A stretch of DNA of 64,000 bases from Carya illinoinensis (Eukaryota; Streptophyta; Magnoliopsida; Fagales; Juglandaceae), in NCBI RefSeq assembly GCF_018687715.1, contig NC_056766.1, positions 37,853,433-37,917,432 on the forward strand, given 5' to 3'. Under the pieces are notes generated by a model that worked only from the letters and a program-made list of their open reading frames with translations, made no database searches and was not told the origin of the DNA. Position numbers and translations under genes: made by a program. This document shows, piece by piece, positions 10,216 to 63,925 of the stretch. Every line of letters starts with the position of its first letter. The first letter of the stretch is position 1.

Positions 10216-10255
10216 CTTCAGCATTGCACGGGTCGATACACACAGCACCTAGTAT

Positions 10256-19365: not shown

Positions 19366-19425
<60 letters not shown>

Positions 19426-38700: not shown

Positions 38701-39104
38701 TGCTTATGGCTGGACAATCTCCTGGAACATATCTAAGTGCACTGTTAATCTATAGGCTTGGTTTTGCTAGAAGAGCTGTATGTGCTGCAAAAATATTTGA
38801 TCTTTTGCCTGAAGATCATAAGAGCACAGCTACTTTCACTGCTTTGATTGGCGTTTATTTCACTGTGGGAAATGCTGACAAGGGACTTAAAATATTCAGA
38901 ACCATGCTAGAGAAAGGAATCCGTCCTACACTCGGCACGTACAATGTCCTTTTAGCTGGTCTTGCAAATAGTGGTAGAACTTCTGAAGTAGAGGTCTACA
39001 GGAAAGAAAAGAAAAACCTGCAGTTGGATAGTCGTGATCGGGCAACAATCTCCCTGGAGGAAAAGATCTGCGATCTTCTATTTGCTGGGGTTGTGGTGTC
39101 TTGA
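35703..39104 (+). CDS. P-class pentatricopeptide repeat protein, two exons
   Basis: PPR proteins bind organellar RNA in a sequence-specific way and act in its processing, stability or translation. Exon 1 is 35703-36471 (donor G|GTGGGT). Exon 2 is 38104-39104 (acceptor TTTCAG), resuming the frame exactly, for 589 residues. The basic N-terminus (about 1-65) would suit organelle targeting. A conserved block around KEELERLPVRWDSYTVNKVL precedes the repeats. Typical 35-residue P-type repeats start near residue 136 (FTYTTMLDIFGEAGRISSMK), with further ones through VTYTSLMHWL, VSYTTYMKLL, TYTVLMEYLVESG and, near the C-terminus, FTALIGVYF and TYNVLLAGLANSG. I see no E, DYW or SMR domain. It resembles Arabidopsis At2g01390-type proteins, from memory and with moderate confidence. 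No stop or frameshift is visible. Confidence 0.9.
36472..38103 (+). other. 1.6-kb PPR intron with internal tandem duplication and copia-like LTR relic
   Basis: The intron interrupts a PPR repeat. It contains two diverged copies of a segment starting ctagagccctttacttgttc (36496 and 36653, period about 157). Near 36851 the sequence tgataccatgttagaaac has the look of a minus-strand copia primer-binding site abutting an LTR start, which suggests a relic LTR there. The LTR call is tentative. Confidence 0.5.
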
Positions 39105-43210: not shown

Positions 43211-43814
43211 AATTAATTAGGGAAGGGCTTGACCTGTCACTAAAGTGGCATTTGTTCATCTCTTTTATATGTTTGATGTTATGCACTAGACAATCACAAC
43301 TATAATACGTGAAACTTGGAAAGATAATCATACTAATTAATGCCATTAAGAATTAATTCAGGTGCTCTTGTTTTTTTAAGATTTGAAATTAAATGAATAT
43401 TCCTTTTCAATTATCTTACTTTGCTGGATATATTTATTGGAAACCTTCTTAATTAGCATATACATGCACATAATTACAGACAATAATATATACCTTATAT
43501 ATATATATATGCATGCATGGAAAATATAATGACAAGATTAATAAGGCTAACCAAGTTAAAATAATTAAATGATTTTCATTAAAGCATTAAATACAGACAA
43601 TTTTTCATTCCTACTTTGGAATGAAATAATTAAAGCAATATATTAACGTACATATATACAGACAATTTTTCATTCCTACGTTACATATATGTAACGTACG
43701 TCTGCCATATATTAAAACCTCCCCTCCTTGTTGAGTTTTAGTATATATATGTGTGTGCAGTTTTAGGACTAAAAACAGAATCTAAACGTTTTTGAAAAAA
43801 AAAACTGAGTCAGA

Positions 43815-43982
43815 ATGGAAACTTCGATCGAGAGGTTTGTGTTGAAGTTTGCATTGATAGTGCTGTTGATATTGGTGGCTCTCACGGGAATGTCACAGTC
43901 GTGGACTGTTCCTACTTGCTGCAAATTCGAACCCCTTTGCTGCGTAGATCCTGGCATCCGGCCAACCTGCTTGAAGAACTAG
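43815..43982 (+). CDS. Small cysteine-rich putative secreted peptide, copy 1 (55 aa)
   Basis: The family is not recognised. The frame starts METSIERFVLKFALIVLL and has a strongly hydrophobic segment at residues 8-24, like a signal peptide, with a likely cleavage near GMS (25-27). The mature part is about 27 residues, with CC at 35-36 and 42-43 in the pattern C-C-K-F-E-P-L-C-C and a fifth cysteine near the end (TCLKN). The start is supported by a leader (aaaactgagtcag just upstream) that also precedes copies 2 and 3, and by conservation between copies. A TATA-rich stretch (tatatatatgtgtgtg) lies about 70 bp upstream. It could be a signalling or defence-type peptide; the sequence does not show which. 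Expression is unproven. Confidence 0.65.
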   Translation: METSIERFVLKFALIVLLILVALTGMSQSWTVPTCCKFEPLCCVDPGIRPTCLKN

Positions 43983-44516
43983 AAAATTATATCATGATCT
44001 TCTATCTAATAAGTTTATGTTTTCGTACGTAGATCCCAGATGCATTATTAATTTGAATCTTGCAGAGTTGCATGCAGTGCTACAAGCCATATATGACCAT
44101 AACATATGTAATAGTCTGTTTACAGCTACCAGAATGATCTAAAATAAATGCTAGCTTTTGGGTTTCTGCAATATTTAGATTTCGTTTCTCTCTCTCTTTT
44201 CTTCCGTCTGTTTCTCTTTTCTTTTTGAGAAGTGCTCTTCTTCCATATGACATCAAGAAAGTTGATTTCTTCTATGATGAAAATTGTTGGGTTCTCTCTA
44301 TGGATCGAGCGCTCGATTCATAGAGGCTGCCAGATGGGTTGCTTGGGCTTCAATGGTGATTTGTATCTTTCTCATGAATTGCACCCAATTAATAGTTCGA
44401 ACAACATTTGTAAAGGATCCGGACCTTAAAATTCATCGCATAAGGATAGTACAAGGAGACATTATAATTCATGGTTTTAATTCATGTTCTTTTCGTATAA
44501 GGATAATATAAGAAGA

Positions 44517-44966
44517 CATTATATATATTTCTCATCTCATTTCATCTTATCTCACGATGCTCAAGAATGATATAAGATATTTAACTAAGAATAATTGAGC
44601 ATAATATTTTGAAATATTTTTATATTTTAAAATGTTTTAAATATGTTCTAAATGTTTTGAAGGTGTATACATTATATATTTCTCATCTCATCTCATCTTA
44701 TCTCATAATGCTCAAGAATGATATAAGATATTTAACTAAGAATAATAAGCATAATATTTTGAAATATTTTTATATTTTAAAATGTTTTAAATATGTTCTA
44801 AATGTTTTAAAGGTGTATACATTATATATTTCTCATCTCATCTCATCTTATCTTACAATGCTCAAGAATGATATAAGATATTTAACTAAGAATAATAAGC
44901 ATAATATTTTGAAATATTTTTATATTTTACAATGTTTTAAATATGTTCTAAATGTTTTAAAGGTGT
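44517..44966. repeat. Tandem repeat, three copies of about 150 bp
   Basis: Units beginning attatatatttctcatctc start at about 44518, 44671 and 44821, with few differences between them. Because 150 is divisible by three, a long repetitive open frame (44609-44980) runs through the array. I regard it as an artefact of the repeat. The array is not present after block 2. Confidence 0.9.
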
Positions 44967-45129
44967 ATAAAATGTTTTAGACTCATATTATACGATCTAC
45001 GGTAAAATAATAATAATAATATGAACATTTATAATTTTTTTGATCATTTGTTATGAGAGTTATAACGTAATATAATTAACTTAATATGTTAGTATTAATA
45101 CTATGATATTAGTACTATAGTATGCTTAC

Positions 45130-46476
45130 GGGAGTTAATGCCACTTGGCGAAAAGTACCTAAACAGATCGTCTTTTTTCTATACCAATCACAAATCTATT
45201 GACTCTTGGATTTGGAAGGGTATCCTTAAGCAAAAAGATTTTCTTAAAAAAAGGGATATGTTACCAAATAAACAATGGAGTAGATACCAGAATATGGTTT
45301 GATCATTGGATTCCCAATAATCCAAATTTTTCTCGTGTTCCAAAGGATAGAAATGTTCCAAAAGACCATTCTCTTCGGGTCTCGGAGCTAATGATGGAGA
45401 ACATAGAAGGTGGAACGCCATCCTCCTACAAGCCCTTTCCATCAAAATTCTGTTAGTGAGATTGAAAAGATTCCTCTTGCCAAGTATAATTTCCACAATC
45501 TTTCGGATAAACCTATCTAGATTCATCATAACTCTGGTGCTTATAGCATAAAGTCAGCTTATGCTACCATTAACCTTTCCCATGTCCAAGATAGGATAGA
45601 GAATAACACCACTCAAGCAGATATGTGGAAAAAATTGTGGAAGCTATAGATCCAGGAAATGCTCAAGTTCCTTTGTTGGAAAATTCTAAACAATATCATT
45701 CCAGCACGTGACTGTGTAAAAAAATTTTGTCAAGATGAATAATGAGGACATAGACTACCTTGTTTGTAACACTGGAGAAGAAACAATCTCACCTCTTTTT
45801 AAATTGCAGCTTTACTGGAATATTGTGGCATCATTCTCATTGGCCTTTGAACATTTCCTTTTGTGCACAAGATGATACTAACCAATGGATTAACTGTATC
45901 CTTGACACTGTTAGCACACTAGGAATTCCAAAAGAGGAGGAACATCATTTCCAAATTTTTTCTATTATGGCTATGGATAGTATATGATTCCTTAGAAACA
46001 AGGTCCTTGATGAAGCTTTTAAACCTAATTTACCTTATTTTATTTCTTCCACTAAAGAAATTTTCAAAGGACATTTTGATGCTTGGGGCAATATTCAAAT
46101 TAATTCCAGCAAATCATTAGGGCCTCTCCCTGTGGACTATTATATCCTCACCTTTGATGTTGCGGTCAGACAAAGAGGAAGTATAGCAACAGCTATTTGT
46201 CGAACACTAGATGGCTCCATCATCTTTGTAACTACCATGCACCTTTGCAACACAAATCTTAACCAAGGTGAAGCTACAACAATGCTATTAGGACAACACG
46301 AAGTAAAGGAAAACCAAATTGAAAAACTTTTGATTGTTAGAGACTCACTTAATACTCTGAAAGCTGTTCGAGATTCAAATTATGTCCCAGATTATACTAT
46401 GCAACCTCTCATTCAAGATATAAGGATTACTCTTAAAGGCTTTCACACGTGGGAACTTCGGAAAACACATCGAAAT
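45130..46476 (+). pseudogene. Dead LINE, left part, split by the copia insertion
   Basis: Degraded plant L1-type ORF2 sequence runs through several frames. It includes the zf-RVT-like segment near 45270-45330 (IWFDHWIPNNPNF) and, from about 46130, an RNase H-like domain. It is cut at gaaat (46472-46476) and resumes at 56463. Many stops and frameshifts make it non-functional. Confidence 0.75.
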
Positions 46477-47368
46477 TGTAAAGGCAAAAAGTTGGCTAGG
46501 ATTAGATGAGTAAATGATAAGGCTTATCTTATCATATTATTTATTATTGTTGGATGAATGTAAAAATAATTATTAATTTATGTCTAAACAATGTTGAGTC
46601 TATCTAGAAATATTAGGAGTTGTTTAGATAAGTTCCTGAAGTCAAAATCGAGTTCTGTTAGCAGTACACTTATCTAGAAGAAATCAGAACAGAATTCAGT
46701 CTATATCAGAAGAAGTTATCCCGAAGTGTTAGCAGTCCGTCGGGACGCGTTTTCGCGTCTGTTGCTAACCGTCAGCAGAGTCCTACTGCAACTAGAATTC
46801 TTTTCAGATCTTCTATTTAAAGGGGACTCGGTTTTGTATCTCTTTAAGGACTTCAAGCCATGAATTTTACAGAGGATATTCTGTGTGTTTATGAGAGAAG
46901 ATTCACTTGAGAATTTTCATGGGATTTTTCATATCTTCTTGAGTGTGATCGTGCTTTGAGTGGGAAGCAACATCGATTGAGTGTCAGCCTTTGGAGTTCC
47001 AGAAGGGAGGTCAACATTTGAAGATCGCCAGAGGTTCTGGCTGCTACTGTGGTAGAAGACAAACGGGTCGTTTGTCTAGGCAAGTAAGAGAGTCGAATTG
47101 CAAAGGTTTTGTAATTGATTATTACTTGTAATTGTTTTTCAAATAATGAGATTGACTTTCCTGGGTTTGGCTGCCCCGTAGGGTTTTACCTTTAAAGAGT
47201 TCTTTAAAGGGTTTCCCTTCGTAACCAATCGTTGTGTCTTGCAAGTTTGATTATTTATTTTAAAGTATTTGATTCATTTCATAATCTTTATAATTGAGAT
47301 CTAACTAATTTGTTCAAGGAAATTGGTAGACAATTTCGTGGTTTTACAGGGGTACATTGGGAATTTCA
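46477..47368 (+). repeat. 5' LTR
   Basis: It starts tgtaaaggcaaaaag and ends ggaatttca. A CACGCG-like GC patch (gggacgcgttttcgcgtc) and a TATA-like ctatttaaagggg (about 46813) suggest the promoter region. It is identical in length to the 3' LTR. Confidence 0.95.
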
Positions 47369-47421
47369 ATTGGCATCAGAGCGTGGTTCACTCTTTCGAG
47401 TGTGATCCGTGCCCCTGCAAT

Positions 47422-50400
47422 ATGTCATCATTGACTGCCCCACCGCACTTCAATGGTGAAAATTATGCATATTGGAAAGTACGCATGCGAGCCTTTCTCA
47501 AATCATTAGATGAGCGAGTGTGGAACGCGGTTGTACGAGGTTGGACCAGACCAGAAACAAATATTGATGATTGGACGAAAGAAGAAATCACCAACTGTAA
47601 TTGGAATAGCAAGGGGCTGAATGCTATATTCATGGCTGTATCTCCAGAAGAATTTAAGAGAATCTCCATGTGTGAGATTGCTAAAGAGGCATGGGATATC
47701 CTGGAGGTTACACATGAAGGAACAAAAATTGTGAAGAACTCAAAATTACAAATGCTAACTTCCAATTTGAGGAGATTAAAATGCTGGAAGAGGAAAGTTT
47801 TGATGATTTTTATTCTAAACTAAATGATATTGTGAATTCCAGGTTCAATCTTGGAGAAAAGGTGGAAGATTCAAGAGTTGTAAGAAAGATTCTAAGGTCT
47901 TTACCTGAAAGATTTCGACCCAAAGTTACTGCAATTGAAGAAAGTAAAGATCTGGATGCAATAAAGGTAGAAGAACTGGTGGGTTCTTTGCAAACATATG
48001 AATCTTCACTTCCTCAAACAAGAAAAGGTAAGTCCATTGCTTTAAAGACTATAGAAGAAAACTATAAAAATATTTCTGATGAAGAAAGTCTGAATGATGA
48101 AGAGATTGCTTTACTTGCTAGAAAATTCAAAAAGTTCATGTTTAATAAAGAAAGTGGTAAACAAAAACAAAGAAAAAATGTTTTTGCTAAGAAAAATGAA
48201 ACTGAAAATTGGAAAAAAGAAAAAACTGAGAAAAAAGATAAAGTTCAGTGTCATGAATGTTCTGGGTATGGTCATATAAGAGTTGAATGTCCAAACTTCA
48301 AGAAAAACAAAGGGAAAGCATTGAATGTCACACTTAGTGATAGTTCAGATTCTGAAAATTCATCCTCTGATGATGAAAAATCTTTTATGGCTTTCTCTAC
48401 TATTGTGAATGATTTTCCTGATATTACACTGACAAAATCTGAAAGTAGTTATGAATACAGTGATTCAAATGTATCAGTTGTTGAGGCTGATCAAGAACTA
48501 AGTTTACAGGAGGCTTACAATGATGTGTGTGAAGAAGTGATTAAATTAAAGAAACTCAACAAGAAGTTGTATAAAAAGTTCACTGATATGGAAAGTGAGA
48601 AAAACAACCTGTCTGAAGCTTTAAAAGTCTCTGAGAATGAAATAGCCAGGTTAGAAAATCAAAATACTGCACTAGAAAAGGAATTGAAAAAGGTTGAAGA
48701 AAAAACAGCAACACAAAAATTAGAAGAAATGTTGAGTCTTCAAAAAATGAATAGTGACAGAACTGGTCTAGGATACACGACTTCTAAAGGAAAAGAAAAA
48801 TCTGCCTCATCATTCACTGCTACAACCTCCAAAGGTATTGTTTTTGTTAAAGGAAGTCAAGGTAAGAGTTTTCAAAATCATGCTGAACTTAAGCTAGTTT
48901 ATTCAAAAAATCTACATGATAAATTTGTCCCTACATGTCATAAGTGTGGAATAATAGGTCATATAAGACCACATTGTTTTAACTTGAATCAAGTGCAGAA
49001 ATCTGAAGGAAAAAGAAAAGAGAAGAGCCTACAAACTCAAGTTGATGACATAAGTCAACAAATCAGTCTCATAAATCTTAAGCTTGGGGAACTAGCAGAT
49101 ATTTGCCTTCAAAACAAAGAAAAACACAAGTCAATACTCAAGACAAAATGGGTGAGAAAGAAAGATGCAGTATGTCTTATTGCTCACACAGCACTGAAAT
49201 CAAAGGAAGATTGTCTGTGGTACCTGGACAGCGGCTGTTCTAGGCACATGTCTGGAGACAAAAACTTATTTAAAAAAATTGAAGCATCTCATGGAGGCAC
49301 CGTGACTTTTGGAGATGGGAGCAAGGCTGTCATAGAAGGGAAATGGAGTATTGAAATACCAGGACTACCTGTGTTGCATGATGTTTTATTTGTTAATGGT
49401 TTGAAAGCTAATTTACTTAGCATTAGTCAGTTTTGTGACAATGATTTTTCTGTGCAGTTTTCAAAGGATGCGTGCAACCTATATGATAAAGGTGGAGAAT
49501 GGGTTTTAAAAGGTACTAGAACTACAGACAATTGTTATGGAATTTCTCCAAAACCATTGGAGAAATGTCATAGAGTCACACTTGATGAAGCTGAATTATG
49601 GCATCAACGCCTTGGGCATATCAATTTTAAAAATTTGTCAAAAATCTCAAAAAGAAAAATTATTGATGGACTGCCCAAGGTAATAAAAGTGAAGAAAATA
49701 GTATGTGGAGCATGCCAAGAAGGAAAGCAAACTAGAGCCCAACACAAGAAGATTTCTTATATTCTTACCTCTCGGCCTCTTGAGCTATTGCATATGGATT
49801 TGATGGGTCCCACACAAACTGAGAGTCTTGGAGGAAAGAAGTATATCATGGTGATTGTAGATGATTTTTCAAGGTTCACATGGATAATGCTCTTAAGAGA
49901 AAAATCTGAAGCTTTTGATCTTGCCAAAAAGCTGTTCAAGAAACTACAAATAGAGAAGAAAGTTTCTATCTCTAGAATACACAGTGATCATGGTCGAGAA
50001 TTTGGGAATACTAATTTTACTTCTTTTTGTGATGAACAGGGAATACACCAAGAAGTTTCTGCACCTATCACTCCACAACAAAATGGAGTGGTGGAAAGGA
50101 AAAATAGAGCAATCCAAGAAATGGCACGAACAATGTTAAGCAACAAGAAGATGGCTTTATATTTTTGGGGAGAAGCTGTGAATACAGCAAATCATATCTT
50201 GAATCGAGTGGTTCTAAGACCCGGCACCAATCAAACACCTTACGGTTTGTGGAAAAATAAAAGGCCTACGGTAAAGTATTTCAAAATTTTTGGTAGCAAG
50301 TGTTATATTCTAAAAGACAGAGAAAACAATCATAAATTTGAAAGCAAAAGTGATGAGGGATTGTTTCTTGGCTATTCCTCAAATAGTAAGGCTTATAGAG

Positions 50401-52238
50401 TTTACAACTTACGTACACAAACTGTTATGGAATCAATTAACGTAGTTGTGGATGACATTTCAGCTGAAACTACCATGAAGGAGCTTGAGAATATGAAGGA
50501 ACTAGGGCAGACCAGTGGAGAAGACTTACAAGTGCAAAATGAGGAAGATAATATAAAGGAAACACCACAAAATCCACAAATCAAAGAACCTTCTTCAAGA
50601 ATAACTCAAAATCATCCTAAAGAAAACATTCTCGGTGAGCTAGAAGAAGGTATGAGACTTAGAAGAAGAGTACTAAATCAGGTTTCTTTTGTGTGTTATT
50701 TGTCACAGGTTGAACCCAAGAAAGTCGAAGAAGCACTAAATGATGAAAGTTGGGTCAACGCCATGCATGAAGAACTCCATCAATTTACTAGAAATGATGT
50801 ATGGGAGTTAGTTCCTAAACCAGAAAATTCTAACATAATTGGGACTAAGTGGATCTTTAAGAACAAATCCGATGAGCATGGTACTATTGTGAGAAATAAA
50901 GCAAGGCTGGTTGCACAAGGTTACACACAAGTAGAAGGGATTGATTTTGATGAAACATTTGCTCCTGTGGCCCGGTTAGAAACTGTTCGCATTCTTCTAG
51001 CACTTGCCTGTCATCTAGACTTCAAATTATATCAAATGGATGTCAAGAGTGCCTTCCTAAATGGAGTGTTACAAGAAGAGGTATATGTCAACCAACCAAA
51101 AGGATTTGTTAACCATCTCTACCCTGAATATGTCTACAGGTTGAAGAAGGCGCTGTATGGACTGAAACAAGCACCTCGAGCTTGGTATGAAAGATTAACT
51201 GCCTACTTACTTGATCATGATTTTGTTAGAGGACAAGCTGATAGGACCTTATTCATAAGAAGATCAGGTAAACAACTCTTAATTGCTCAAATATATGTTG
51301 ATGATATTGTTTTTGGAGCAACACTTGAATCTCTTGCTTATAACTTTGCAAATGAAATGAAATCTGAATTTGAGATGAGTATGATTGGTGAGTTAAATTT
51401 CTTCTTGGGTATTCAAGTAAAACAATGTAAAGAAGGAATATTTATTTCACAATCTAAATATGCAAGAGATCTTGTAAAAAAGTTTGGAATGGAAGGAAAA
51501 AGCAATGCTCGGACTCCCATGAGCACTTCAGTGAAAATCAGCAATGACTCCACAGGTAAAAATATTGATCCCACTCTCTATAGAAGCATGATAGGAAGTC
51601 TTTTATATATTACAGCAAGTAGACCTGATATAGCTTTCAGTGTTGGTGTATGTGCTAGATTTCAAGCTAATCCTAAAGAATCCCATCTTACTGCAGTAAA
51701 AAGAATCATAAAATATCTTAATGCCACTGTTGATTATGGGATATGGTACTCAAAAGACACTAATCTTACACTTGTTGGCTATTCGGATGCTGATTGGGCT
51801 GGGAATGCTGATGATAGGAAGAGTACTACGGGTGGATGTTTTTATATAGGTGGAAATCTTGTAGCTTGGATGAGTAAGAAGCAAAATTCTATCTCTTTAT
51901 CCACTGCTGAAGCTGAATACATAGCTGTAGGGAGTTGTTGTACTCAGCTATTATGGATGAAAAAAATGCTTGATGATTATGGTTTTTCTCAAGACACTAT
52001 GACAATATATTGTGATAATTCTAGTGCTATAAGTATTTCCAAAAATCCTGTCCAGCATTCTCGGACCAAGCACATTGATATTCGACATCATTTTATAAGA
52101 GACTTGGTTGAGTCTAAAATTATATCCATGGAACATGTGCCTACTGAACATCAACTGGCTGACTTGTTTACTAAACCTTTGGATGGACTTAGATTTGAGT
52201 TTTTACGAAAAGCCATTGGCATATGTGATCCCAAGTGA
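47422..52238 (+). pseudogene. Sirevirus-like gag-pol polyprotein with one frameshift in gag
   Basis: The reading starts at 47422 (MSSLTAPPHFNGENYAYW). Near 47764-47766 one base is missing, and the frame continues one register over to 52238 (1485 codons open from 47781). Domains in order are gag (UBN2), zinc knuckle C-x2-C-x4-H-x4-C near 48249, a coiled-coil-prone region (about 48520-48740), a second zinc knuckle near 48935, protease ([11 protein letters not shown], about 49218), the GAG-pre-integrase HHCC region ([15 protein letters not shown]), integrase with D-D-E ([22 protein letters not shown]), reverse transcriptase with YVDDI near 51294, and RNase H ([26 protein letters not shown]). All catalytic motifs are present, so only the frameshift breaks it. 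Gag and pol otherwise form one frame. Confidence 0.9.
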
Positions 52239-53258
52239 GGATTTTCTATCCTACTAGTTTAGGATCTTTTCTTCCAGTTTTTTTTTTTTTTTCCTTTCTT
52301 TAAAAGCATAAATGTTTCAGTTTTTTTTTGTTTTTATTTAAAAAAAAAAAAAAACTGGGTTATGTATTTTCTTTAAGGTATATGTTTATTACATCACAGG
52401 TTGAGCATGTATGGAATTGCTTTCAAAAATTTTCTGATCTTATGTGTTACTCCTCTTTGTGCAGCTCTCTTTAAGTGTACTAACCCTATAGGTCTTTTTG
52501 GAAAAGTTCATCTTTATGCATTGTGAGGAACCTATATGTAAGCATTCTTTTTTTTAAAAAAAAAAGGATGCTCATCAAGAGGGAGTTCATGCCTTGAATT
52601 GACTAATACTAGTTGAACCTAGTACTTCTTTAAAGAGCTCTCTTCTTGCCAAACACAAAGAGTGATCCATATAGAAAAAGTCGGTGTTTATTCATTGCGG
52701 AAAAAGACAAACACCCTACACGGATCTATCACCTTGAGTTCTTACAGAAAAAATCGTTGCTCCAATCATTGTGGAAAAAGATGAGCAACCAACATGAACA
52801 AAGGTGGTGTACAAACTAGTGTTTGGAGGAGATGCATATGTATCTAGGCCCTAGCATAAAGTTTGACTTTTAAGGTCAAGAAACAAACTCTAGTGAGCAT
52901 CTTTATAAAAAAATATATTACCTTTCTTTGAACAAAGGTATCAAAAATATAACACAAAAGAGCAATAAACAAAAAAAAAAGGGGGAAAGCTCATAACATG
53001 CTATGATATAAGTATACTCACTCACACACTCACCTGAACTTTGGCATTACTGATTCTATGAGGAGTGAACATCCACAAAGAGACTGTTACAAACATGAGT
53101 GGGCTAAGGATTATTGGATTTTTTTTGGTATATTCTGACTTGATCAAACTAAGATGATTTTAAGCATGTTCCTTTTAAAACCAAAACAACAAAAAAAACC
53201 AAATCTTTTCTACAAAAAAAAAAAAATTTATAGTTTGTTTTTTCATTGCTTTGTTCTG

Positions 53259-53310
<52 letters not shown>

Positions 53311-54014
53311 GGGGTTCCCAGTGTGTTGCATACATGTATCGGGTCTTTTATGCCTAAGTGTAGAAGTCCTAATAGGACTCTTTGGTCCAGCACGTGCACG
53401 GGGAGGGTCTTCTTTTAAAACACTTAAGCATACCTCTTGGCCTTTGTTTCCTACACTCAGCCCGATTCTCATCAGCCTCCCCTTACCCATTTTCACGGCA
53501 GCTCGCTTCCTTCCCCCTAATCCTCCATACACGGTGCTCTTTCCACTCACATTTCTCCATCCTTCCATCTTCAAGGTAAGTATTTTCGGATCCTCTGTTT
53601 TTTTTTCTATTCTTTTCTTCTCTCAAGTTTCGGTTTTTGTTGATATCTACAATTTCTGTGAAGGGTTTTATTTTTTTTATCTTGGTTGTTGGATTGAGCT
53701 ACACTACTCGGAATTAGGTTGTGTGTATTGATTCTTCTCATTCTATGCATGTATTGAGGAAAAATCTCTATTACACACGGATTCTCTGTTTTTTTTCCCA
53801 CGGGTGCACACCAAGTGTTTGTGTTTTTTCCTGACTCACCTCTCTTTTGTTTTGGTCACTTGTTAGGATGGCTCTTTCTTATCTATACATAGTAAGGTTT
53901 TCTGCACATATTGTGTTTGGGTTGTTCTCAACGTTCAAGCTTATAAAAAAAAAAACACCAACCCACCTTTTAATATCACATTTTTGTTTTATCTATTCTT
54001 ATCCTCTATAAGGT
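52239..54014 (+). other. Retrotransposon spacer between pol and the extra ORF
   Basis: No conserved protein is visible. Homopolymer tracts occur at about 52278-52292, 52339-52354 and 53261-53309. Short frames here are low-complexity. The segment could contain a promoter or intron for the downstream ORF. Confidence 0.5.
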
Positions 54015-55247
54015 TTGAGAATTATCTTTCTAAACTTGATTCTTGTACTATTTCATATGAGATTCAAAGAAAGGGCAAAACGCAAAAAGTTCACTACTCC
54101 GGTGCCATCCGAGCACTCTTCAAGTGAGGATGTCCCATCACTTGAACCCATGCAATTAGGCGACACTTCTGCCCCTCCTCCATCTCCATCACCATCGGTG
54201 CCTGTGCCCACAGAAGCACCTACTGATCGCTTCACCTCCATTGAAGCCGAAAATGCCTATAGAAATACCTTTTCCAAGAGACCCATCTTGGGTGAGCGGG
54301 AGGTAAGCATCCATGACTTTCCTTCGGATGACTTCCAAATTATCCACCAAATATTCATTGAAAGAGGTTGGGAGAAGCTCACTCATGCCCTTCCTACACC
54401 TTATGTTGAGGTGGTCCGGGAATTTTATTCAAATATAGCCCACTTCAATTTAGATGATCATAGCATCATCTCTACTATTCGTGGGATTCAGATTGAGGTA
54501 TATCCTGCTATTCTCCGCAATCTATTTACTCTTCCTGAGGTTGAATCCCCTCTATATCCATATAAGGGCATGGGAGCCCCAACCAAGACTGCAATGCGCA
54601 ATCTATTTGTTGGTGTCACTGGCCCCAAATGGACTGCCAAGACACACCGACTGCCCCTTCACAATATGCTTCCTCAGTATCGGCTTCTGACCAAAATTGT
54701 CTTGACCAATTTCTGGCCCATTAGTCGTCACACTGAAATTTCTCTAGAAAGAGCTTATTTTATGTATGCTCTTGCTACTGGTGTGTCTATTGATTTTCCA
54801 CGACATGTCATTGATATTATTCATCGCTCACATGTGGAAAAAGAGTTAAATCTCCCCTTTGGAAGTCTAATTACAAAATTGGCCATGATTGCAAAAGTGC
54901 CCCTTCGAGCCAATGAACCCACCATGAAGCTGCCAGGGCCTATTTCTGCCTTAACCGTGGTTAAATCAGCAGCTGTCATCACCAAGAAGCGCCCCCTTAC
55001 TACTGAGTCAGCATCCTCTCCACCTGAACCATCCATCCCCACCTCACAACTACTTGAGCAACTCACCTTGATATCTCAGAAGATGGATAGCTTCACAGCC
55101 AAGTGGGAGGCCAGTCAGTCCAAGTTGGAGCAACAATTGGCTGCAGTATGCTTTGATTGTGTACAAGCAAACGATCGACTAGTTCAATTGTCCTTGGATG
55201 TCCAACAAATTATGGCCAGCGTAGCAGATTCTGACGAGGAAGTATAG
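54015..55247 (+). CDS. Extra ORF of the retrotransposon, 'putative plant transposon protein' type (410 aa)
   Basis: This frame lies between pol and the 3' LTR, where Sireviruses carry an env-like or accessory ORF. The N-terminal 20 residues are hydrophobic, but ATG choice is uncertain and MRFKERAKRKK (about 54057) is an alternative start. A Pro/Ser-rich stretch (about residues 45-70) follows. The core, about 90-290 (VEVVREFYSNIAHF, STIRGIQIEVYP, LTKIVLTNFWPISRHTEIS), matches the plant-transposon domain I know as Transposase_32/PF20167, an identification made from memory. The C-terminus (about 340-405) is coiled-coil-prone (LEQLTLISQKMDSF). Its biochemical role is unknown. It is fully open, unlike gag. 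Confidence 0.75.
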   Translation: MRIIFLNLILVLFHMRFKERAKRKKFTTPVPSEHSSSEDVPSLEPMQLGDTSAPPPSPSPSVPVPTEAPTDRFTSIEAENAYRNTFSKRPILGEREVSIHDFPSDDFQIIHQIFIERGWEKLTHALPTPYVEVVREFYSNIAHFNLDDHSIISTIRGIQIEVYPAILRNLFTLPEVESPLYPYKGMGAPTKTAMRNLFVGVTGPKWTAKTHRLPLHNMLPQYRLLTKIVLTNFWPISRHTEISLERAYFMYALATGVSIDFPRHVIDIIHRSHVEKELNLPFGSLITKLAMIAKVPLRANEPTMKLPGPISALTVVKSAAVITKKRPLTTESASSPPEPSIPTSQLLEQLTLISQKMDSFTAKWEASQSKLEQQLAAVCFDCVQANDRLVQLSLDVQQIMASVADSDEEV

Positions 55248-55558
55248 ATCTTCATGGCTGATTGTTGACAAAAAGGGGGAGAAAAAGTTTGAGGGGGAGT
55301 ACATTAAAAAGTTTGAGGGGGAGTACATTTGGGGAGCAGCAGCATCTAAGGGGGAGTACATTTGAAAAACTTATCATGTTATTTTTTTGGGACTGTAATG
55401 CAGATACAATTGGGCATGTATTTTGATTAAGCTAACTGACCATTCTGGTTTTATTAAATCACAACTCTTTATAATATTCTATACTTTTTTGTGATTTGAT
55501 AGTTGACATATTTTCAGGAAATCTACATTCATCAAACTGGTTTCGTCATCAATCCGCC

Positions 55559-55570
55559 AAAGGGGGAGAT
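55559..55570 (+). other. Polypurine tract next to the 3' LTR
   Basis: aaagggggaga immediately precedes the 3' LTR and would prime plus-strand synthesis. Extra agggggag copies lie at about 55274-55281, 55291-55300, 55315-55325 and 55349-55357, a Sirevirus trait. Confidence 0.8.
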
Positions 55571-56462
55571 TGTAAAGGCAAAAAGTTGGCTAGGATTAGA
55601 TGAGTAAATGATAAGGCTTATCTTATCATATTATTTATTATTGTTGGATGAATGTAAAAATAATTATTAATTTATGTCTAAACAATGTTGAGTCTATCTA
55701 GAAATATTAGGAGTTGTTTAAATAAGTTCCTGAAGTCAAAATCGAGTTCTGTTAGCAGTACACTTATCTAGAAGAAATCAGAACAGAATTCAGTCTATAT
55801 CAGAAGAAGTTATCCCGAAGTGTTAGCAGTCCGTCGGGACGCGTTTTCGCGTCTGTTGCTAACCGTCAGCAGAGTCCTACTGCAACTAGAATTCTTTTCA
55901 GATCTTCTATTTAAAGGGGACTCGGTTTTGTATCTCTTTAAGGACTTCAAGCCACGAATTTTACAGAGGATATTCTGTGTGTTTATGAGAGAAAATTCAC
56001 TTGAGAATTTTCATGGGATTTTTCATATCTTCTTGAGTGTGATCGTGCTTTGAGTGGGAAGCAACATCGATTGAGTGTCAGCCTTTGGAGTTCCAGAAGG
56101 GAGGTCAACATTTGAATATCGCCAGAGGTTCTGGCTGCTACTGTGGTAGAAGACAAACGGGTCGTTTGTCTAGGCAAGTAAGAGAGTCGAATTGCAAAGG
56201 TTTTGTAATTGATTATTACTTGTAATTGTTCTTCAAATAATGAGATTGACTTTCCTGGGTTTGGCTGCCCCGTAGGGTTTTACCTTTAAAGAGTTCTTTA
56301 AAGGGTTTCCCTTCGTAACCAATCGTTGTGTCTTGCAAGTTTGATTATTTATTTTAAAGTATTTGATTCATTTCATAATCTTTATAATTGAGATCTAACT
56401 AATTTGTTCAAGGAAATTGGTAGACAATTTCGTGGTTTTACAGGGGTACATTGGGAATTTCA
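55571..56462 (+). repeat. 3' LTR
   Basis: It has the same length and ends as the 5' LTR, with five single-base differences by eye (near gttgtttaaataag, gccacgaatt, gagaaaattc, tgaatatcgcc and gttcttcaaa). Confidence 0.95.
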
Positions 56463-56679
56463 GAAATGAAAATCGATGCACGCATTCCATTGCACAATGG
56501 GCGGCCTCCAAATCTTTGTTTGGAAATATTCCACTTATTATAATCCCTCCCTCTCTGTTAACTGTTTAAAGTGGGAAAGACCCACCTACATTTTTATAAT
56601 TTTGATTGTACAAATGCTGCATCAAGTAGTGGATCTTTCTATATTTTAATATCAGATGCTTTATTCCAAACAAAAAAAT
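56463..56679 (+). pseudogene. Dead LINE, right part, resuming after the copia insertion
   Basis: After the duplicated gaaat the LINE RNase H end continues (CTHSIAQWAASKSLFGNIPL) to a 3' UTR and a short A-rich end (about 56671-56678). Joined to 45130-46476 it forms one interrupted element. Confidence 0.75.
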
Positions 56680-56829
56680 AATATTAGTATAGTATGATAT
56701 TATGATATATATTAGTATTATACTATGATATTTGCATAATATTATAACTTATAGTAGTAACATTATAATACTATGATATATTAATATATAATATAAATTG
56801 ACACTTAATTAAAATCAGAAAACTAAACT

Positions 56830-59617
56830 GAACCGAATGAATCCTATTTTTGTGGTAGAAGAGATTAAAAATGATATTTTTCAGATGAATCCTATGAGCT
56901 CCCTTGGACCAGATGGTTTCAATGCTGGTTTTTATTAAGTTCATTGGATATTGTTGGTTAGGATATTTGTAGAGCTGTTCTTGAGTTTCTTAAAAATGCA
57001 AGTGGAGATTTGAGTCTCATTAATGATACTTACATTGTGTTAATTCCAAAAAAGAAGAACCCTAAGCAAGTCTCAGATTACAGGCCAATCTCTCTTTGTA
57101 AGGTTATTGACCAAATCATTTCTAAGATTTTAACAAATCGGTTGAAGAAGATTCTGCCTGAGATCATATCCCTTAAACGCCTTTATCCTTGGAAGGTTGA
57201 TTCTCAACAATGTCATGGTGGCTTATAAAACCATACACTTAATGAATTTAAGGTTGAAGGGTAAGACAGACTATATAGCATTGAAGTTAGACATGAGCAA
57301 GGCTTATGATAAGGTGGAGTGGAAGTTTCTTCAAGCTGTTATAGCCAAATTGGGATTCAATTAGAAATGGATTGGCCTAATCACAAGATGTTTAAACTCA
57401 GTTTCTTATTATATTCTGCTCAATGGCTCTCCTCAGGTTCATTTCAAAGCTTCTAGATGTTTGTGCAATGGATCACCCTACCTTTTCATCTTATGTTCTG
57501 AAGCATTGAGTACTTTACTCAATAAGGCTGAGGTGTCCAAAATTATCACTGGGATACCTATTCTTTGAGGAGACATTTGCATTAACCATTTGTTTTATAC
57601 AAATGACAACTTATTATTTTGCAGAGCTAACTCTTTGGAATGGAGCAATATGATTGGACTATTGGATTGTTATGAAAAAGCTTCAGGCCAAAGACTTAAT
57701 AAGGACAAGACCTCTATTCATTTCAGCAAAAACACAAGTAGGGAAGTCAGGGGGATCATTTTGAGTATTGCTAGGGTAAGATCTTCATCCTCTTATGAAA
57801 AATATTTGGGGTTACTTGCTCTTGTTGTTAGATCTCGTTTCCAAGCTTTTACTAGCACATTGAATAGAGTCAGAAGTAAGGTCAATAACTGGAAAACCAA
57901 GTTGTTGTCCAAAGTAGGCAAGGAGATTCTATTGAAGGCAGTGATTCAAATATTGCCCACTTACTACATGGGTGTTTTTAAACTCCCTAAATCCCTCCTA
58001 AATAAAATTAACTAAGTGATGAGATAGTTTTGGTGGAGCCAACAGCATAATGAAATGAAGATTCATTGGGTTTCTTGGAGTCAAATGAGAAAGGCCAAGC
58101 CAGTAGGAGGCTTGGGATTTAGTTATTTGGAGAGTTTCAATTTGGCACTACAAGGATGGAGGTTTCTATAGAATCTAGAAGCTTTGGCTAGTAAAGTTTT
58201 CAAATTGAAATATTTCCCTCTAACCTCATCATTTCTGGAAGCTAAGTTGGGTGCTAATCCATCTTTTATACGGGGAAGTTTATTTGCAACAAAAAATATG
58301 GTGAAAGATGGATCTCTATGGAGGATTGGGAATGGTGAAAAAGTGAGGATATGGAAGGATCATTGGATTCCCCAGCCTTCTTCTTTCAAAATCCAAAGTA
58401 TGCTTGCTGTCTTGGACTCTAATGCAAAGGTAATAGCTCTCATTGACTCAGACACAAGTGAAGCTTATTCAACAAATGCCTTTCAATTATTCAAATTGTC
58501 CAAATAAGTTAGTATAGAGGTGTAGCATGAATGGCCTTTTTATAGTGAAAAGTACTTACCATTTATAGAAGGAGTTGATTGAAAGATGGAGAGGGCAAGG
58601 TTCAAACTCTAACTCAGATAAGCAAGTCTGGTCTCAAATTTGGAAGCTAAATGATAGTAATGCAACTAAGATTTTCATATAGAGAGCATGTCTGGATTAT
58701 CTGCCAACAAACTCAAATCTTTCAAGAGAAGGGTTATGGATTCATCTTTATGTTCCATTTGTCTGTTAGAGGAAGAGACAGGTATTCATTCAACATGGGA
58801 ATGCCTTGTTGCAAAGGATGTGTGGTGCGTGTGCACAAAGAAGCTTAAAAAATGTGGTTTTTCTGCTGTAAGTTTTTTGAAGTGGCTTACAACTATTTTT
58901 TATTTGTTTGATCAAGAGCTAGTAGAGGAGATTGTCACAATAGCTCAAAAGATATGGCAAAGAAGAAACACTTTTCTCTTCAAAGGATCTTTTATTCATC
59001 CAACAAAAGTCATGCTTCAAGCAAAACAAGCAACCATTGATTTTCAAGCTGCCAATAAGATGGAGAGCAGGGATGAGGCAACTTTGAATATCATCATTAC
59101 TAGCTAGGAACCTCCTCATGTTGGGATCTACAAAGTGAACTGGGATGCAGCTCTTAGTAGGACTACTAGCAAGGTGGGCATTGGGATAATAGTAAGAGAT
59201 AATGAAGAACATATCATTGCTACAAAAAGGATGTAGGAAAGTTTTGTTCAAGATCCTCATCTGGATGAATCCTATGGGACTCTTCAAGCAATCAAATTTG
59301 TTTTGCAAATTGGAATCAGAAAGATTATTCTTGAAGGAGATGCTTTAAATGTTATTAAAAACATTAATCAGAGTGTTGATTCTTGCCACAACTCGAGAGC
59401 TTTTATTTAGAATATAAAATTTGTTCTTGCACAATTAGAGTTTCAGGAAGCTACTCATATCAGAATAGGATCTAATGTTTCTGTAGATGTTCTAGATAAA
59501 AATGCTCTAGGAGTATCTGAGGACATCATTGACATAGAAAGTTGTCCTCCTTGTACTCTTTCCTTCATTTGAGGTGTTTAATCAATGAAGAGTATTTCTT
59601 CTTTAAAAAAAAAAAAA
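56830..59617 (+). pseudogene. Second LINE, 5'-truncated ORF2 pseudogene
   Basis: L1-type ORF2 is readable through many stops: reverse transcriptase (MSSLGPDGFNAGFY, KTDYIALKLDMSKAYDKVEW), a damaged catalytic site (YTNDN in place of Y/FADD), the thumb region (SSSSYEKYLGLL, LLSKVGKEILLKAV), zf-RVT (WRIGNGEKVRIWKDHWIP, then C-x-H/C near 58750-58810) and RNase H to about 59571. It ends in an A tract (59604-59617). The endonuclease domain and ORF1 are absent. Confidence 0.85.
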
Positions 59618-59634
59618 AACCATAAGCAGTTTGT

Positions 59635-59637
<3 letters not shown>

Positions 59638-59724
<87 letters not shown>
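59638..59724. repeat. GA microsatellite, about 87 bp
   Basis: A pure GA run lies just downstream of the second LINE tail and may have grown from that tail. Confidence 0.95.
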
Positions 59725-59731
<7 letters not shown>

Positions 59732-60153
59732 TAAGGAGAGAGAGCAATTAAAATTAGTATGTGATTCTACTGGGTAAGTTTTATGAAACCGTTGAGATGT
59801 CTTTTTCTAGTTGGAATGTGTAAATCTTACATTTTGGCCCCATCCGATTTTAAGATTTTCTCTAATAATATATATAGTGGCCGATAGTTGATGTTATGGC
59901 TTCATTAAAGCAAAGCTAATTATGATTGAAAAATTATATATAGGATATCTATAGGTATATATTTCTTTTTCCCATAAACTAATAAATAACAAATTCTTAA
60001 TCAACTAATTTTTCTCCATATAATTAGGGAAGGGCTTGATGATCTGTGATCACTAAAATGGCATTTGTTCATCCTTTTTATATGTTTAATGTTTTACACA
60101 TGACGGCTGCAACTGTAATACATGAAACTGGGCAAGATAATCATACTAATTAA

Positions 60154-61489
60154 TAGGAGTGTTCAACCGGGTTTCGAACTGGGTATTCGGGTATACCCGA
60201 CCTGGAACCCGGGTTTAAAATCCTGGCTGGGTTTCGGACTGGGTATATCCGGGTTATGACCCGGTCTGAAACCCAGATTAATCCGAATTTTTACAAACTG
60301 GAAATCCGGATTCCGTATGCAACCCAGTTTTTTTTTTTTTTTTAATTGAAGTCATTCTATTATTAATTTTTTTATGTTGAAAAAATATTTATAAAAAATT
60401 CAATATTTTATTACAATTTTTTCAAGAAATAATGTTGAAATGCAAAATTTTTTTATCATATAAAAACTTATATTTTTTTATATTATTGTCCATGATGATA
60501 AAAATATCAACTAATTAACACATACATATAAGCTAATGCTACAAACAACTAAGAGCATCCCCATCCGGTTCCCCAAACATCAAATTCCCTATAATTTGAG
60601 GAAATATTTAGGGATTTCATCCCAAACCACCCCCCATCCCATTCCCCATTTTGGGGTTTAGGGATGGGGTTGCTACAGTAGGTCCCCAAATATGGGGACC
60701 TACTGTTTGTCCCCAAACCATTTTTATATTGAGAGAAATTCTTTGTAGTTAAGTTTATAAAAGGAGGTGAGAGAAAAATGTAATAAAGAAATAATAAAGA
60801 AATGTTATTTTAATAAAATAGAGAAAATATAGGGAATGGGATGTAGGAGGTTTTTGAAAGATGAGTAAAATTTAGGGAAAAATTTTAGGAAATGTACTTT
60901 TTAGTTAAATTATAGGGAATTTTATAGGGAATGGGATGTGAATGCTCTAATTAACCTAAAAGAAAAAAAAATTCACTACATATTACATTGTTTGAACTGA
61001 TTTGTTTAGAACATTACAAACCACATACATTGTTTTAATTAAACTCCAATACACAACAACAAATATGAACTAATTTGGTAAGAACATTCTTGCAACCTCT
61101 ACATCCAAAAGACTATAAAAATTGACATTGCTCTTCAAAAGTCCAACAATAGTACAAGAAGGATGTAGTCTCAAAATGTTGAAAGAAACCTTTAAACCTG
61201 CAAAAGAACACACCTAAAACAATTAGTTATCAGTTATCCTTCCATTTACTAATGCACTTATCACTCCTACAAGTGACAACATTGAACCAAAAACAGAATA
61301 TAGAGGCTGGTTTCGGCCCCAAATCAATAAAACGTAATATATATAAATCCGAGTACCGAATTTTAATACCAGATCTGGATTGTATAGGTTCGGATTATGT
61401 AATCCGGATTTCGGCCCCAGTAACCGGAATCCGGTTTCTCTGGGTTTCGGGTCGGGACGGATAAAATCTGGCCCGGATGAACAAGCCTA
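60154..61489. mobile_element. Non-autonomous hAT-type element, 1,336 bp
   Basis: The ends are taggagtgttcaaccggg (60154) and cccggatgaacaagccta (61489), inverted and related to the element at 42126-43101. An exact 8-bp duplication ctaattaa lies at 60146-60153 and 61490-61497. Subterminal atccgg/acccgg words are dense. A PIF/Harbinger-type MITE is nested inside. No transposase is present. The empty site survives in block 1 near 43331-43341. Confidence 0.85.
60553..60947. mobile_element. PIF/Harbinger-type MITE, 395 bp, nested in the hAT element
   Basis: It starts gagcatccccatccggttcc and ends gggaatgggatgtgaatgctc, which are imperfect inverted repeats. TAA flanks both sides (60550-60552 and 60948-60950), the 3-bp duplication typical of this superfamily. 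No coding capacity is visible. Confidence 0.7.
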
Positions 61490-61905
61490 CTAATTAATGC
61501 CATTAAGTAATTCCCTCTTATTTTTTTAAGATTTGAAATTAAATGAATATTCCTTTTCAATTATCTTACTTTGCTGGATATATTTATTAAATATTAGCGC
61601 ATATATACATGCAAATACTTACAGACAATAATATATACCAATATTATATATGCATGGAAAATATGAAAAAATTAATAAGACTAACCAGATTAAAATAATT
61701 AAATAATTTTCATTAAAGCATTAAATACAGACAATTTTTCTTTCCCATTTTGGAATGAAATAATTAAAGCAGCATTAATATATGTAACGTACGTCTGCCA
61801 TATATCAAAACCTCTCCTTCTTGTTGAGTTTTTGTATATATATGTGTGTGCAGTTTTAGGACTTAAAACAGAAGCTAAACGTTTTTGGAAAAAAACTGAG
61901 TCAGA

Positions 61906-62076
61906 ATGGAAACTCCGATCGAGAGGATTGTGTTGAAGTTTGCATTGATACTAGTGCTGTTGATATTGGTGGCTCTCACGGGAATGTCACATTCGTGGAC
62001 TGTTCCTACTTGCTGCAAATTCGATCCCAAATGCTGCGTAAATCCTGGTACCGGGGCAACCTTCTTGAAGAACTAG
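61906..62076 (+). CDS. Small cysteine-rich putative secreted peptide, copy 2 (56 aa)
   Basis: This is the paralogue of the gene at 43815, in duplicated block 2. It begins METPIERIVLKFALILVL, with a hydrophobic segment at residues 8-25 and a likely cleavage near GMS (26-28). The core is C-C-K-F-D-P-K-C-C (36-44). Relative to copy 1 there is one extra codon (Leu) in the hydrophobic segment. The C-terminal cysteine is replaced by phenylalanine (TFLKN). Leader and TATA-like sequence match copy 1. All differences keep the frame open, which fits but does not prove protein-level selection. Confidence 0.65.
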   Translation: METPIERIVLKFALILVLLILVALTGMSHSWTVPTCCKFDPKCCVNPGTGATFLKN

Positions 62077-62603
62077 AAAATTCTATGATCTTCTAATAAG
62101 TTTATGTTTTCGTATGTAGATCCCAGATGCATGATTTGAATCTTGCAGAGTTGCATGAAGTACTACATGAGGCCATATATGGCCATAACATATGTAATAG
62201 TCTGTTTACAGCGCTACCAGAATGATCTAAAATAAATGCTTTTGGGTTTCTGCAACTCATGTCATGTAATGTGTTTGCAATATTTAGATTTCGTTTCTCT
62301 TTCTCTTTTCTTCCGTCTATTTCTCTTTTCTTTTTGAGAAGTGCTCTTCTTCCATATGACATCAAGAAAGTTGATCTCTTCTATGATGAAAATTGTTGGG
62401 TTCTCTCTATGGATCGAGCGCTCGATTCATAGAGGCTGCCAGAAGGGTTGCTCGGGCTTCAAAGGTGATTTGTATCTTTCTCATGAATTGCACCCAATTA
62501 ATAGTTCGAACAACATTTGTAAAGGATCCAGACCTTAAAATTCATCGCATAAGGATACTATAAGGAGACATTATAATTCATGGTTTTAATTCATGTTCTT
62601 TCA

Positions 62604-63658
62604 GTTATCTTTCAATTCATATTGGAAGTATTAAATAATATTATCAATATCGAAGGATTTTAATGGAATTTATAGAACAAAGCCCAATGCTAGAGTCTAG
62701 AGAAACATAATTATGTCGGACGAAGATCTTTTGTGTTAAATGGAATTTAAGCAATAATCTATGAGCTCCGAGGCATTTTCATGTGCAAATCAATTCAAGA
62801 GGGTTATAATCCTTTTTTTCCATTATAGGATTATATATAGTACTAGCTCTGCATTATTAAACCTTCAATGGAATTCACCTGCCCATCTAGCTAGGACCAG
62901 AAAATGGGCAGATTTTCCGTCATCAGTTTTAAAATCTTCTTTTAAAAATATGAAGATAACTCTAGAATGATGAAAAGCATTGTTATGTTTTATATAATAG
63001 AATGAGAAATGATAATTACAGTTGTGAGTGCGTCAACGCCATTTAATTACTTTAAAAAGAAATTAATTTTTTAATAGTAGATCTTATTATTTTTCAAAGC
63101 GACTAGTACACGGTATTTTATATGCACTTCAACTGTATGTAACATTACTTTAATAGAATTAAGGTAGTGAAATATGTGTTTGAAGTTAATGAAATAAAAT
63201 AGTTCAAAATTTGTAAAGGGGAGCATATAATTAAAAAAACGCCAGCCCACATTTAACCACAATAAAGGTTGATTGGCAAGAAGATCACATATCATGAATG
63301 AATAAAATGTCAACTCTCTTTCCAAATAAATGAGACAGATCGACGTACGTCCTTAAAGCAATTAATAGGTATAACGAATGTGATGTATAATAACGTCGGA
63401 GCCATGCATATTGTGACATTCAAAGAAATAAAAAATAAATGCTCATTGATGACAAAGACGTGAATGACAGTTACATAGTAAATACTATACTAATTAAAAG
63501 TGCCCACAACATGATATCATTAATTAACCTTTTGTGCATGCATGCATAATATTGTTACTGCCATGCTGCTTGCATATATATCAACCCTCCTTGTTAACAA
63601 TTTTATGAACTAAAAAAGAAGGCTAGCTAGCTAAACTTTATTGAAAACTGAGTCAGTA
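62604..63658. other. Spacer between peptide copies 2 and 3
   Basis: No gene is recognised. The last about 150 bp (from about 63530, gcatgcataatatt through tatatatcaaccctcc) resemble the upstream regions of copies 1 and 2 and include a tatatat box, so they probably hold the copy 3 promoter. Confidence 0.45.
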
Positions 63659-63808
63659 ATGGATAATCCGATGAGGCTCGTGTTGAAGTTTACAGTGACA
63701 GTGCTGCTGATCTTGGTGGCTCTCACCGCCAAGGGAATGTCAAAGCCGTCTTATAATTATATGCCTCCTTGCTGCAGGTTCGAGCCCTTGTGCTGTACGC
63801 GCGTCTGA
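63659..63808 (+). CDS. Small cysteine-rich putative secreted peptide, copy 3 (49 aa)
   Basis: This is the more diverged member. It begins MDNPMRLVLKFTVTVLLI, with a hydrophobic segment at about 7-23 followed by AKGMSKP. The core C-C-R-F-E-P-L-C-C is at 38-46, and the protein stops three residues later (TRV). Compared with copies 1 and 2 it has a short insertion before the core and lacks the C-terminal extension. Downstream DNA still resembles that extension (gaccctgggg, then ctagaaa), so the stop is a later change. The leader gaaaactgagtcag is conserved, as is 3' UTR sequence (tgatcttcta, gtaatagtc, gatctaaataaatg). Confidence 0.6.
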   Translation: MDNPMRLVLKFTVTVLLILVALTAKGMSKPSYNYMPPCCRFEPLCCTRV

Positions 63809-63925
63809 TCATCACACCCCGACCCTGGGGAGCTAGAAACTGTGATCTTCTAAGAAGTTTATGTAATAGTCGGCTTACCACCTGACTGATCTAAATAAAT
63901 GGTTTTGGATTTCTAAGATTTTTGT

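What the first reader, a model, noticed from the sequence alone, without database searches (positions are those of the whole stretch)
43815..63808. Unrecognised family of tiny secreted CC-x5-CC peptides in a local cluster
Three genes of 49-56 codons share a signal-peptide-like N-terminus (VLKF...LLILVALT), a GMS cleavage region and a core C-C-[KR]-F-[DE]-P-x-C-C. They also share a leader (actgagtcag) and a 3' UTR. All three frames are open despite indels in multiples of three, while DNA around them has drifted. I know no plant peptide family with this core. Paired vicinal cysteines in a mature part of about 25 residues suggest a disulfide-folded secreted peptide, which is inference.
Basis: partly seen in the sequence, partly recalled or inferred. 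Interest (0 to 1): 0.9.

Follow-up and report, generated by a model that had tools for sequence, protein, structure and literature searches.

The report
Paired-cysteine secreted peptides in pecan
Three neighbouring short open reading frames on what is likely a pecan chromosome, and a fourth on another chromosome, likely encode peptides of about 50 residues, each with two pairs of adjacent cysteines, that are predicted to be secreted and would fold into tiny disulfide-tied loops likely used in defence or signalling; no relative outside this family turned up in the searches run.

Summary
Open frames of 55, 56 and 49 codons lie at 43815-43982, 61906-62076 and 63659-63808, with a hydrophobic start, GMS and CC-[KR]-F-x-P-x-CC. 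A fourth intact copy (54 codons) lies on contig C4. Two whole-genome protein searches and one for the exact core found no further member. In neutral simulations, four open frames plus CC-x5-CC arose in 0 to 0.37% of runs, depending on settings. This favours real genes.

Frame and cysteine core are what is kept; the rest of the mature part seems to change fast, on a small sample. The split of copies 2 and 3 looks nearly as old as the C15/C16 genome duplication, so walnut relatives are expected but were not searchable. Expression, secretion, disulfides and function are untested. My reading: a small family of apoplastic two-disulfide peptides, most likely defence or stress ligands; a new family of a known general kind with an unusual cysteine frame.

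The parts
43815..43982 (+). copy 1, 55 aa, core CCKFEPLCC, predicted mature part of 28 residues after GMS
61906..62076 (+). copy 2, 56 aa, core CCKFDPKCC, predicted mature part of 28 residues
63659..63808 (+). copy 3, 49 aa, core CCRFEPLCC, predicted mature part of 21 residues, short C-terminal tail; identical to a protein already in a public protein set (P0001)
43331..44494 (+). duplicated unit around copy 1 (85% identical to 61488-62601)
61488..62601 (+). duplicated unit around copy 2
43804..43813 (+). shared leader ACTGAGTCAG before copy 1
61895..61904 (+). shared leader before copy 2
63647..63656 (+). shared leader before copy 3
43742..43750 (+). TATA-like stretch upstream of copy 1 (inferred promoter element; a second candidate lies at 43706-43719)
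   Evidence: sequence read by eye
61835..61843 (+). TATA-like stretch upstream of copy 2 (inferred)
   Evidence: sequence read by eye
63575..63581 (+). TATA-like stretch upstream of copy 3 (inferred)
   Evidence: sequence read by eye
44143..44148 (+). AATAAA, candidate poly(A) signal of copy 1
   Evidence: sequence read by eye
62231..62236 (+). AATAAA, candidate poly(A) signal of copy 2
   Evidence: sequence read by eye
63894..63899 (+). AATAAA, candidate poly(A) signal of copy 3
   Evidence: sequence read by eye

Best explanation
Four short uninterrupted frames, three in this cluster and one on contig C4, share a hydrophobic start and a CC-[KR]-F-x-P-x-CC core and likely encode a small family of secreted peptides that would be clipped after GMS, tied into a tight loop by two disulfides, and likely act in the cell wall space as defence or stress ligands. 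Shown: the frames, the shared core, four copies found, the duplicated units, and retention of frame and cysteines beyond simulated neutral drift. Inferred: transcription from the shared upstream region, entry into the secretory path, cleavage after G-M-S, pairing of cysteines across the 5-residue spacer, and display of the conserved [KR]-F-x-P turn to a receptor or other target. The changing residues around the fixed frame suggest a partner that changes, as in defence. The C4 copy's likeness to the others ends 67 bases before its start codon, so it is probably silent or differently driven.
For: Four intact copies; no fifth in two whole-genome protein searches or the exact-core search. Neutral simulations of 20,000 runs per setting and root: four frames open in 0.11-0.19%, with CC-x5-CC in none; at lower divergence 0.7-0.9% and 0.005%; with few indels as well 3.3-5.8% and 0.24-0.37%. 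Substitution-only simulation: four Cys kept in 2.5-3.1%, the seven-residue core in about 0.2% of runs (core chosen after seeing it). 15-residue hydropathy 2.6-3.3 in the four starts; 6 of 121 ATG frames of 45-100 aa in the window reach 2.5, three of the six values being those of the window copies. Nonsynonymous changes between copies 1 and 2: about 2 up to GMS, 9.5 after (p = 0.03 on rounded counts). Copies 2 and 3: K about 0.15, against 0.16 and 0.20 for two stretches of the C15/C16 pair, so the frame may have lasted tens of millions of years.
Against: No transcript or peptide evidence could be had. dN/dS is not below 1 in two of three close pairs (2.3, 1.7, 0.97) and is only 0.65-0.86 against copy 3. 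Coding DNA is no slower than flanks in copies 1 and 2. In the substitution-only control the number of invariant columns (24 of 45) is unremarkable (p 0.13-0.14). The AF2 model gives no confident mature fold (mean pLDDT 66; 52-56 over residues 31-55), so the disulfide loop is not seen. No homolog in another species was found, though short genes are often unannotated. Net charge is only +1 to +2, weak for a membrane-active antimicrobial peptide. Nothing tested points to a receptor.
Confidence: 0.45

Rival explanations
1. The frames are decaying or chance open frames inside a duplicated non-coding or once-coding unit, kept open because the sequence is poor in stops and the copies are young.
For: Coding part diverges as fast as its flanks in copies 1 and 2; dN/dS about 1 or above in close pairs; two other frames are also open in copies 1, 2 and C4; the C4 copy's upstream likeness ends 67 bases before its ATG; with few indels a neutral run keeps four frames in 3.3-5.8% of cases.
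Against: Copy 3 is much older and still open with the same core; neutral runs seldom keep four frames with CC-x5-CC (0 to 0.37%); the copy 3 protein is already in a public protein set.
Confidence: 0.2
2. Small antimicrobial or anti-herbivore peptides: the same secreted two-disulfide fold, acting directly on microbes or gut membranes and not through a plant receptor.
For: Fixed cysteines, changing mature part, local duplication.
Against: Net charge only +1 to +2; only four copies found; amphipathicity not tested.
Confidence: 0.2
3. A tiny canonical protease inhibitor: the nine-residue ring C-C-[KR]-F-x-P-x-C-C presents K/R as P1 and the invariant proline as P3', as in the Bowman-Birk loop CTP1SXPPXC.
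For: Same ring size, basic residue at P1 in 4 of 4 copies and proline at P3' in 4 of 4 (alignment); motif from the abstract of PMC7760496 (search listing).
Against: Thr before P1 and Ser after it are Cys and Phe here; second proline present only in the C4 copy; no profile match.
Confidence: 0.06
4. Membrane-anchored rather than secreted: the start is a signal anchor and the paired cysteines bind metal or lipid.
For: Long hydrophobic stretch modelled as helix 5-30; vicinal cysteines can bind metal (general knowledge).
Against: Conserved small residues of the GMS motif sit where a cleavage site would lie; no signal-peptide predictor was available.
Confidence: 0.09

Closest known systems
T-superfamily (T1) conotoxins, cysteine framework V (CC-CC)
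   Same: Short secreted peptide whose cysteine frame is two vicinal pairs a few residues apart; two disulfides (PMC7216822, passages).
   Different: Spacer is x4 in the 19 T1 peptides that paper lists, x5 here; cone-snail venom genes grouped by their own conserved signal sequences; no sequence relation shown. An analogy of frame only.
CTNIP/SCREW plant signalling peptides (HSL3 ligands)
   Same: Short plant precursors with predicted signal peptide and cysteines needed for activity (PMC9191895, passages); a model for how a small cysteine peptide could work as a ligand.
   Different: CTNIPs were filtered for two cysteines 9-11 residues apart; here four in two vicinal pairs.
Bowman-Birk inhibitor loop / SFTI-1
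   Same: Nine-residue Cys ring, basic P1, proline at P3'.
   Different: Thr-P1-Ser and the double proline are missing; the motif was checked only against one abstract in a search listing (PMC7760496).
Plant cysteine-rich defence peptides (defensin-like, NCR, thionin, hevein, GASA, RALF)
   Same: Secreted, duplicated locally, fixed cysteines and variable rest (recalled).
   Different: No Pfam family reached its cut-off for the 3 window copies; those families have other cysteine spacings (recalled).

Membership tests
CTNIP/SCREW | two conserved cysteines spaced 9-11 residues (PMC9191895, passages) | tested here: not met
   four copies: cysteines as CC-x5-CC; copy 1's extra C-terminal Cys is Phe, Leu or absent in the others
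CTNIP/SCREW | binding to the receptor kinase HSL3 | not testable with these tools
   needs experiment
T-superfamily conotoxin, framework V | cysteine frame CC-CC (PMC7216822, passages) | tested here: met
   4 of 4 copies; copy 1 has a fifth Cys in its tail
T-superfamily conotoxin, framework V | four-residue spacer of the listed T1 peptides | tested here: not met
   spacer is five residues in 4 of 4 copies
T-superfamily conotoxin, framework V | T-superfamily signal sequence | not tested
   no such sequence was fetched; plant genome, so relation is not expected
Bowman-Birk inhibitor | loop CTP1SXPPXC (PMC7760496 abstract) | tested here: not met
   ring size, basic P1 and P3' proline match in 4 of 4; Thr and Ser positions in 0 of 4; second Pro in 1 of 4
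Any Pfam family (defensins, late nodulins/NCR, thionins and others) | score above the curated cut-off | tested here: not met
   3 window copies scanned, C4 copy not: matches were Sex_peptide 15 of 25 bits (residues 14-34) and Orexin 13.6 of 22.6
NCBIfam families | score above the curated cut-off | tested here: not met
   4 copies scanned; 3 families at E 0.055, 0.2 and 0.22, to bacterial membrane proteins; the two with scores shown reach 9.2 of 1768 and 10.1 of 452 bits
Secreted plant peptide (general kind) | N-terminal signal peptide | tested here: inconclusive
   hydropathy and small residues around GMS fit; no predictor or localisation test available
Secreted plant peptide (general kind) | expressed and released | not testable with these tools
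   no RNA or peptide data in reach

The most novel reading that the evidence does not exclude
A previously undescribed class of plant peptide ligand or inhibitor built on the smallest double-disulfide frame, CC-x5-CC, kept in the walnut family for tens of millions of years with a fixed [KR]-F-x-P turn while the rest of the mature peptide changes under diversifying selection: a plant counterpart in form to framework V conotoxins.
Probability: 0.15. Interest if true: 0.7.

Novelty: new variant of a known kind. Interest (0 to 1): 0.45.

Why it matters
Short secreted peptides are under-annotated in plant genomes, and each new family is a possible ligand for an orphan receptor kinase or a defence molecule (general knowledge). 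This one has a cysteine frame that I found in no plant family in these searches, is small enough to synthesise, has four members found in the genome, and makes clear predictions: intact copies in walnut, stress-linked expression, and activity that depends on the cysteines.

Tried and rejected
Larger spliced gene: rejected as the simple model, because copies 1, 2 and C4 share one stop and copy 3 stops earlier, and the conserved stretch 0.2-0.45 kb downstream (open as 65 aa in copies 1 and 2) carries, among other changes, a 4-base insertion and a 1-base deletion in C4 and has no Pfam match at E 0.01. Non-coding RNA: no Rfam family at gathering score near the cluster. Genome-duplication origin of the C4 copy: not supported; the WOX1-like neighbour's duplicate is on C16, and about 170 kb around the C4 copy showed no match to the upstream flanks, the PPR gene or the last WOX1 exon. 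A C16 counterpart of the cluster: none in the stretches read nor in the whole-genome searches. Structure prediction: uninformative for the mature part, so no fold search was run. PDB and NCBIfam: chance-level only. Papers holding any of six core strings: 0; papers holding at least four of six terms for a plant CC-CC signalling peptide: 0. Two weak protein hits on C3 and C14 (E 0.77 and 0.86) show no CC-x5-CC core in the matched frames.
Full report
What was checked. They share a hydrophobic start, G-M-S and the core CC-[KR]-F-[DE]-P-x-CC, the leader ACTGAGTCAG, an upstream TATA-like stretch and an AATAAA site 3' of the frame (read by eye). The window lies on contig C15 of a 674.39 Mb assembly with 17 contigs. 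This fits the pecan 'Pawnee' assembly of 674.27 Mb in 16 scaffolds (PMC8257795, passages); the species is therefore inferred.

Family size. A whole-genome search with the copy 1 protein gave the three window copies, a fourth intact copy at C4:13275227-13275388 (54 aa, core CCKFHPPCC) and two weak matches (E 0.77 and 0.86) without the core in the matched frame. The copy 3 protein gave the same four and nothing else at E 10. The exact core CC-x-F-x-P-x-CC at DNA level has 6 matches genome-wide: the four copies and two places whose frames lack a signal-like start; the backwards pattern gave 2. The protein searches are limited by a loose first look. A DNA search for decayed copies did not complete.

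Relatives elsewhere. Two searches of a 5.8-billion protein collection returned one protein, identical to copy 3, in a cluster of two sequences whose longest contig is 41.6 Mb (C15 here is 47.1 Mb), so at least one public set already holds it, without a Pfam domain. One search scored 7971 candidates, the ones sharing most words; one search scored 84. A control with part of the neighbouring PPR gene returned 149 proteins, with many named plants among the 120 listed. Pfam, NCBIfam and PDB gave nothing convincing. No paper in the library holds any of six core strings. A plant peptide-hormone review (PMC11756074, passages only, of a text held in part) showed no matching family in the passages seen.

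Duplication history. Copies 1 and 2 share a 1.2 kb unit at 85% identity. Copy 3 shares its gene and pieces of 3' flank with copy 2. The C4 copy matches copy 2 from 67 bases before its ATG to about 1.35 kb beyond, with interruptions, and then breaks upstream beside a frame that I take for LINE-like (read; label recalled, untested). An LTR element with 99.3% identical ends (46472-47368 and 55566-56462) lies between copies 1 and 2 and, by that identity, likely came later than their duplication. The WOX1-like neighbour has its duplicate on C16 (94% over 55 aa), and C15 beyond the window is collinear with C16. No peptide copy lies in the C16 stretches read (4 kb between them unread). K is 0.05 for copies 1/2, 0.15 for copies 2/3, and 0.16 and 0.20 for two C15/C16 stretches (local alignments, so low, and coding and non-coding DNA mixed). 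The copy 2/3 split thus looks nearly as old as the genome duplication, put at about 60 million years in PMC8257795 (passage). On this view walnut should have the gene; an absent C16 copy means loss there or an origin after the duplication.

Selection. Between copies 1 and 2 the coding part differs at 13 of 168 sites, upstream at 43 of 418 and downstream at 23 of 503; Fisher p 0.44 and 0.12, and 0.08 against a second alignment of the flanks. The coding part is not slower. dN/dS by counting is 0.096/0.041, 0.094/0.056 and 0.098/0.101 among copies 1, 2 and C4, and 0.285-0.318 over 0.37-0.44 against copy 3. About 2 nonsynonymous changes fall up to GMS and 9.5 after it between copies 1 and 2 (p 0.03); all changes after GMS against the flanks give p 0.08, and up to GMS p 0.16. 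This is uneven but small-sample.

Coding nonetheless favoured. Only the stated frame is open in all four copies; two others are open in three. Indels in the coding part are in frame in 5 of 5 cases by my count, with the limits given under the observation check, against 10 of 36 pooled flank indels. Neutral simulations kept four frames with CC-x5-CC in 0 of 20,000 runs for each of two roots, and in 0.005% to 0.37% under two milder settings. With substitutions alone, four cysteines survive in about 3% and the seven-residue core in about 0.2% of runs, the core having been chosen after the fact; the overall count of invariant columns is not unusual (p 0.13-0.14). CC-x5-CC appears nowhere else in about 123 kb read in six frames, nor in about 170 kb around the C4 copy, nor in 40 kb of C15 and 30 kb of C16; these stretches overlap in part.

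Reading. The four starts are strongly hydrophobic (values 2.6-3.3; 6 of 121 ATG frames of 45-100 aa in the window reach 2.5), and the AF2 model is confident only in that helix. If cleaved after GMS the mature peptides have 21-28 residues with net charge +1 or +2. The cysteine frame resembles framework V conotoxins in form (CC-x4-CC in the T1 peptides listed in PMC7216822, passages). How it might work resembles CTNIP, whose two cysteines are needed for receptor binding (PMC9191895, passages), but it is not a member. A Bowman-Birk-like loop reading is possible by ring size, P1 and P3' but fails the motif (PMC7760496, abstract in listing). I commit to an apoplastic two-disulfide peptide, most likely a defence or stress ligand, with moderate confidence that it is a real secreted peptide and low confidence in the target.

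Noticed in passing
window 46472-56462: Young LTR retrotransposon (ends 99.3% identical over 897 bases) between copies 1 and 2, with one long copia-type frame (label recalled) and an extra downstream frame at 54015-55247 that matches Pfam Transposase_32 (101.9 bits, cut-off 45).
   Followed up: partly
window 18042-20111 (-): WOX1-like homeobox gene (name recalled from its homeodomain and start); duplicate on C16:25265290-25265451 at 94% over 55 aa.
   Followed up: partly
window 35703-39104 (+): Pentatricopeptide repeat gene, in at least two long frames; the second has At2g01390-named relatives.
   Followed up: partly
window 10144-10509: Bacterial-type small-subunit rRNA fragment beside a tRNA match, probably an organelle DNA insertion.
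   Followed up: no
window 44180-44440 and 62290-62550: Stretch 0.2-0.45 kb 3' of copies 1 and 2, within the 3' flank that differs at only 23 of 503 sites; it holds a 30-base inverted repeat at 44296-44325. Reason unknown; gene conversion is possible.
   Followed up: partly
C4:13275389-13275455 (in L002): Leader of the C4 copy reads ACTCAGTCAG instead of ACTGAGTCAG, and homology ends 67 bases upstream of its ATG.
   Followed up: partly
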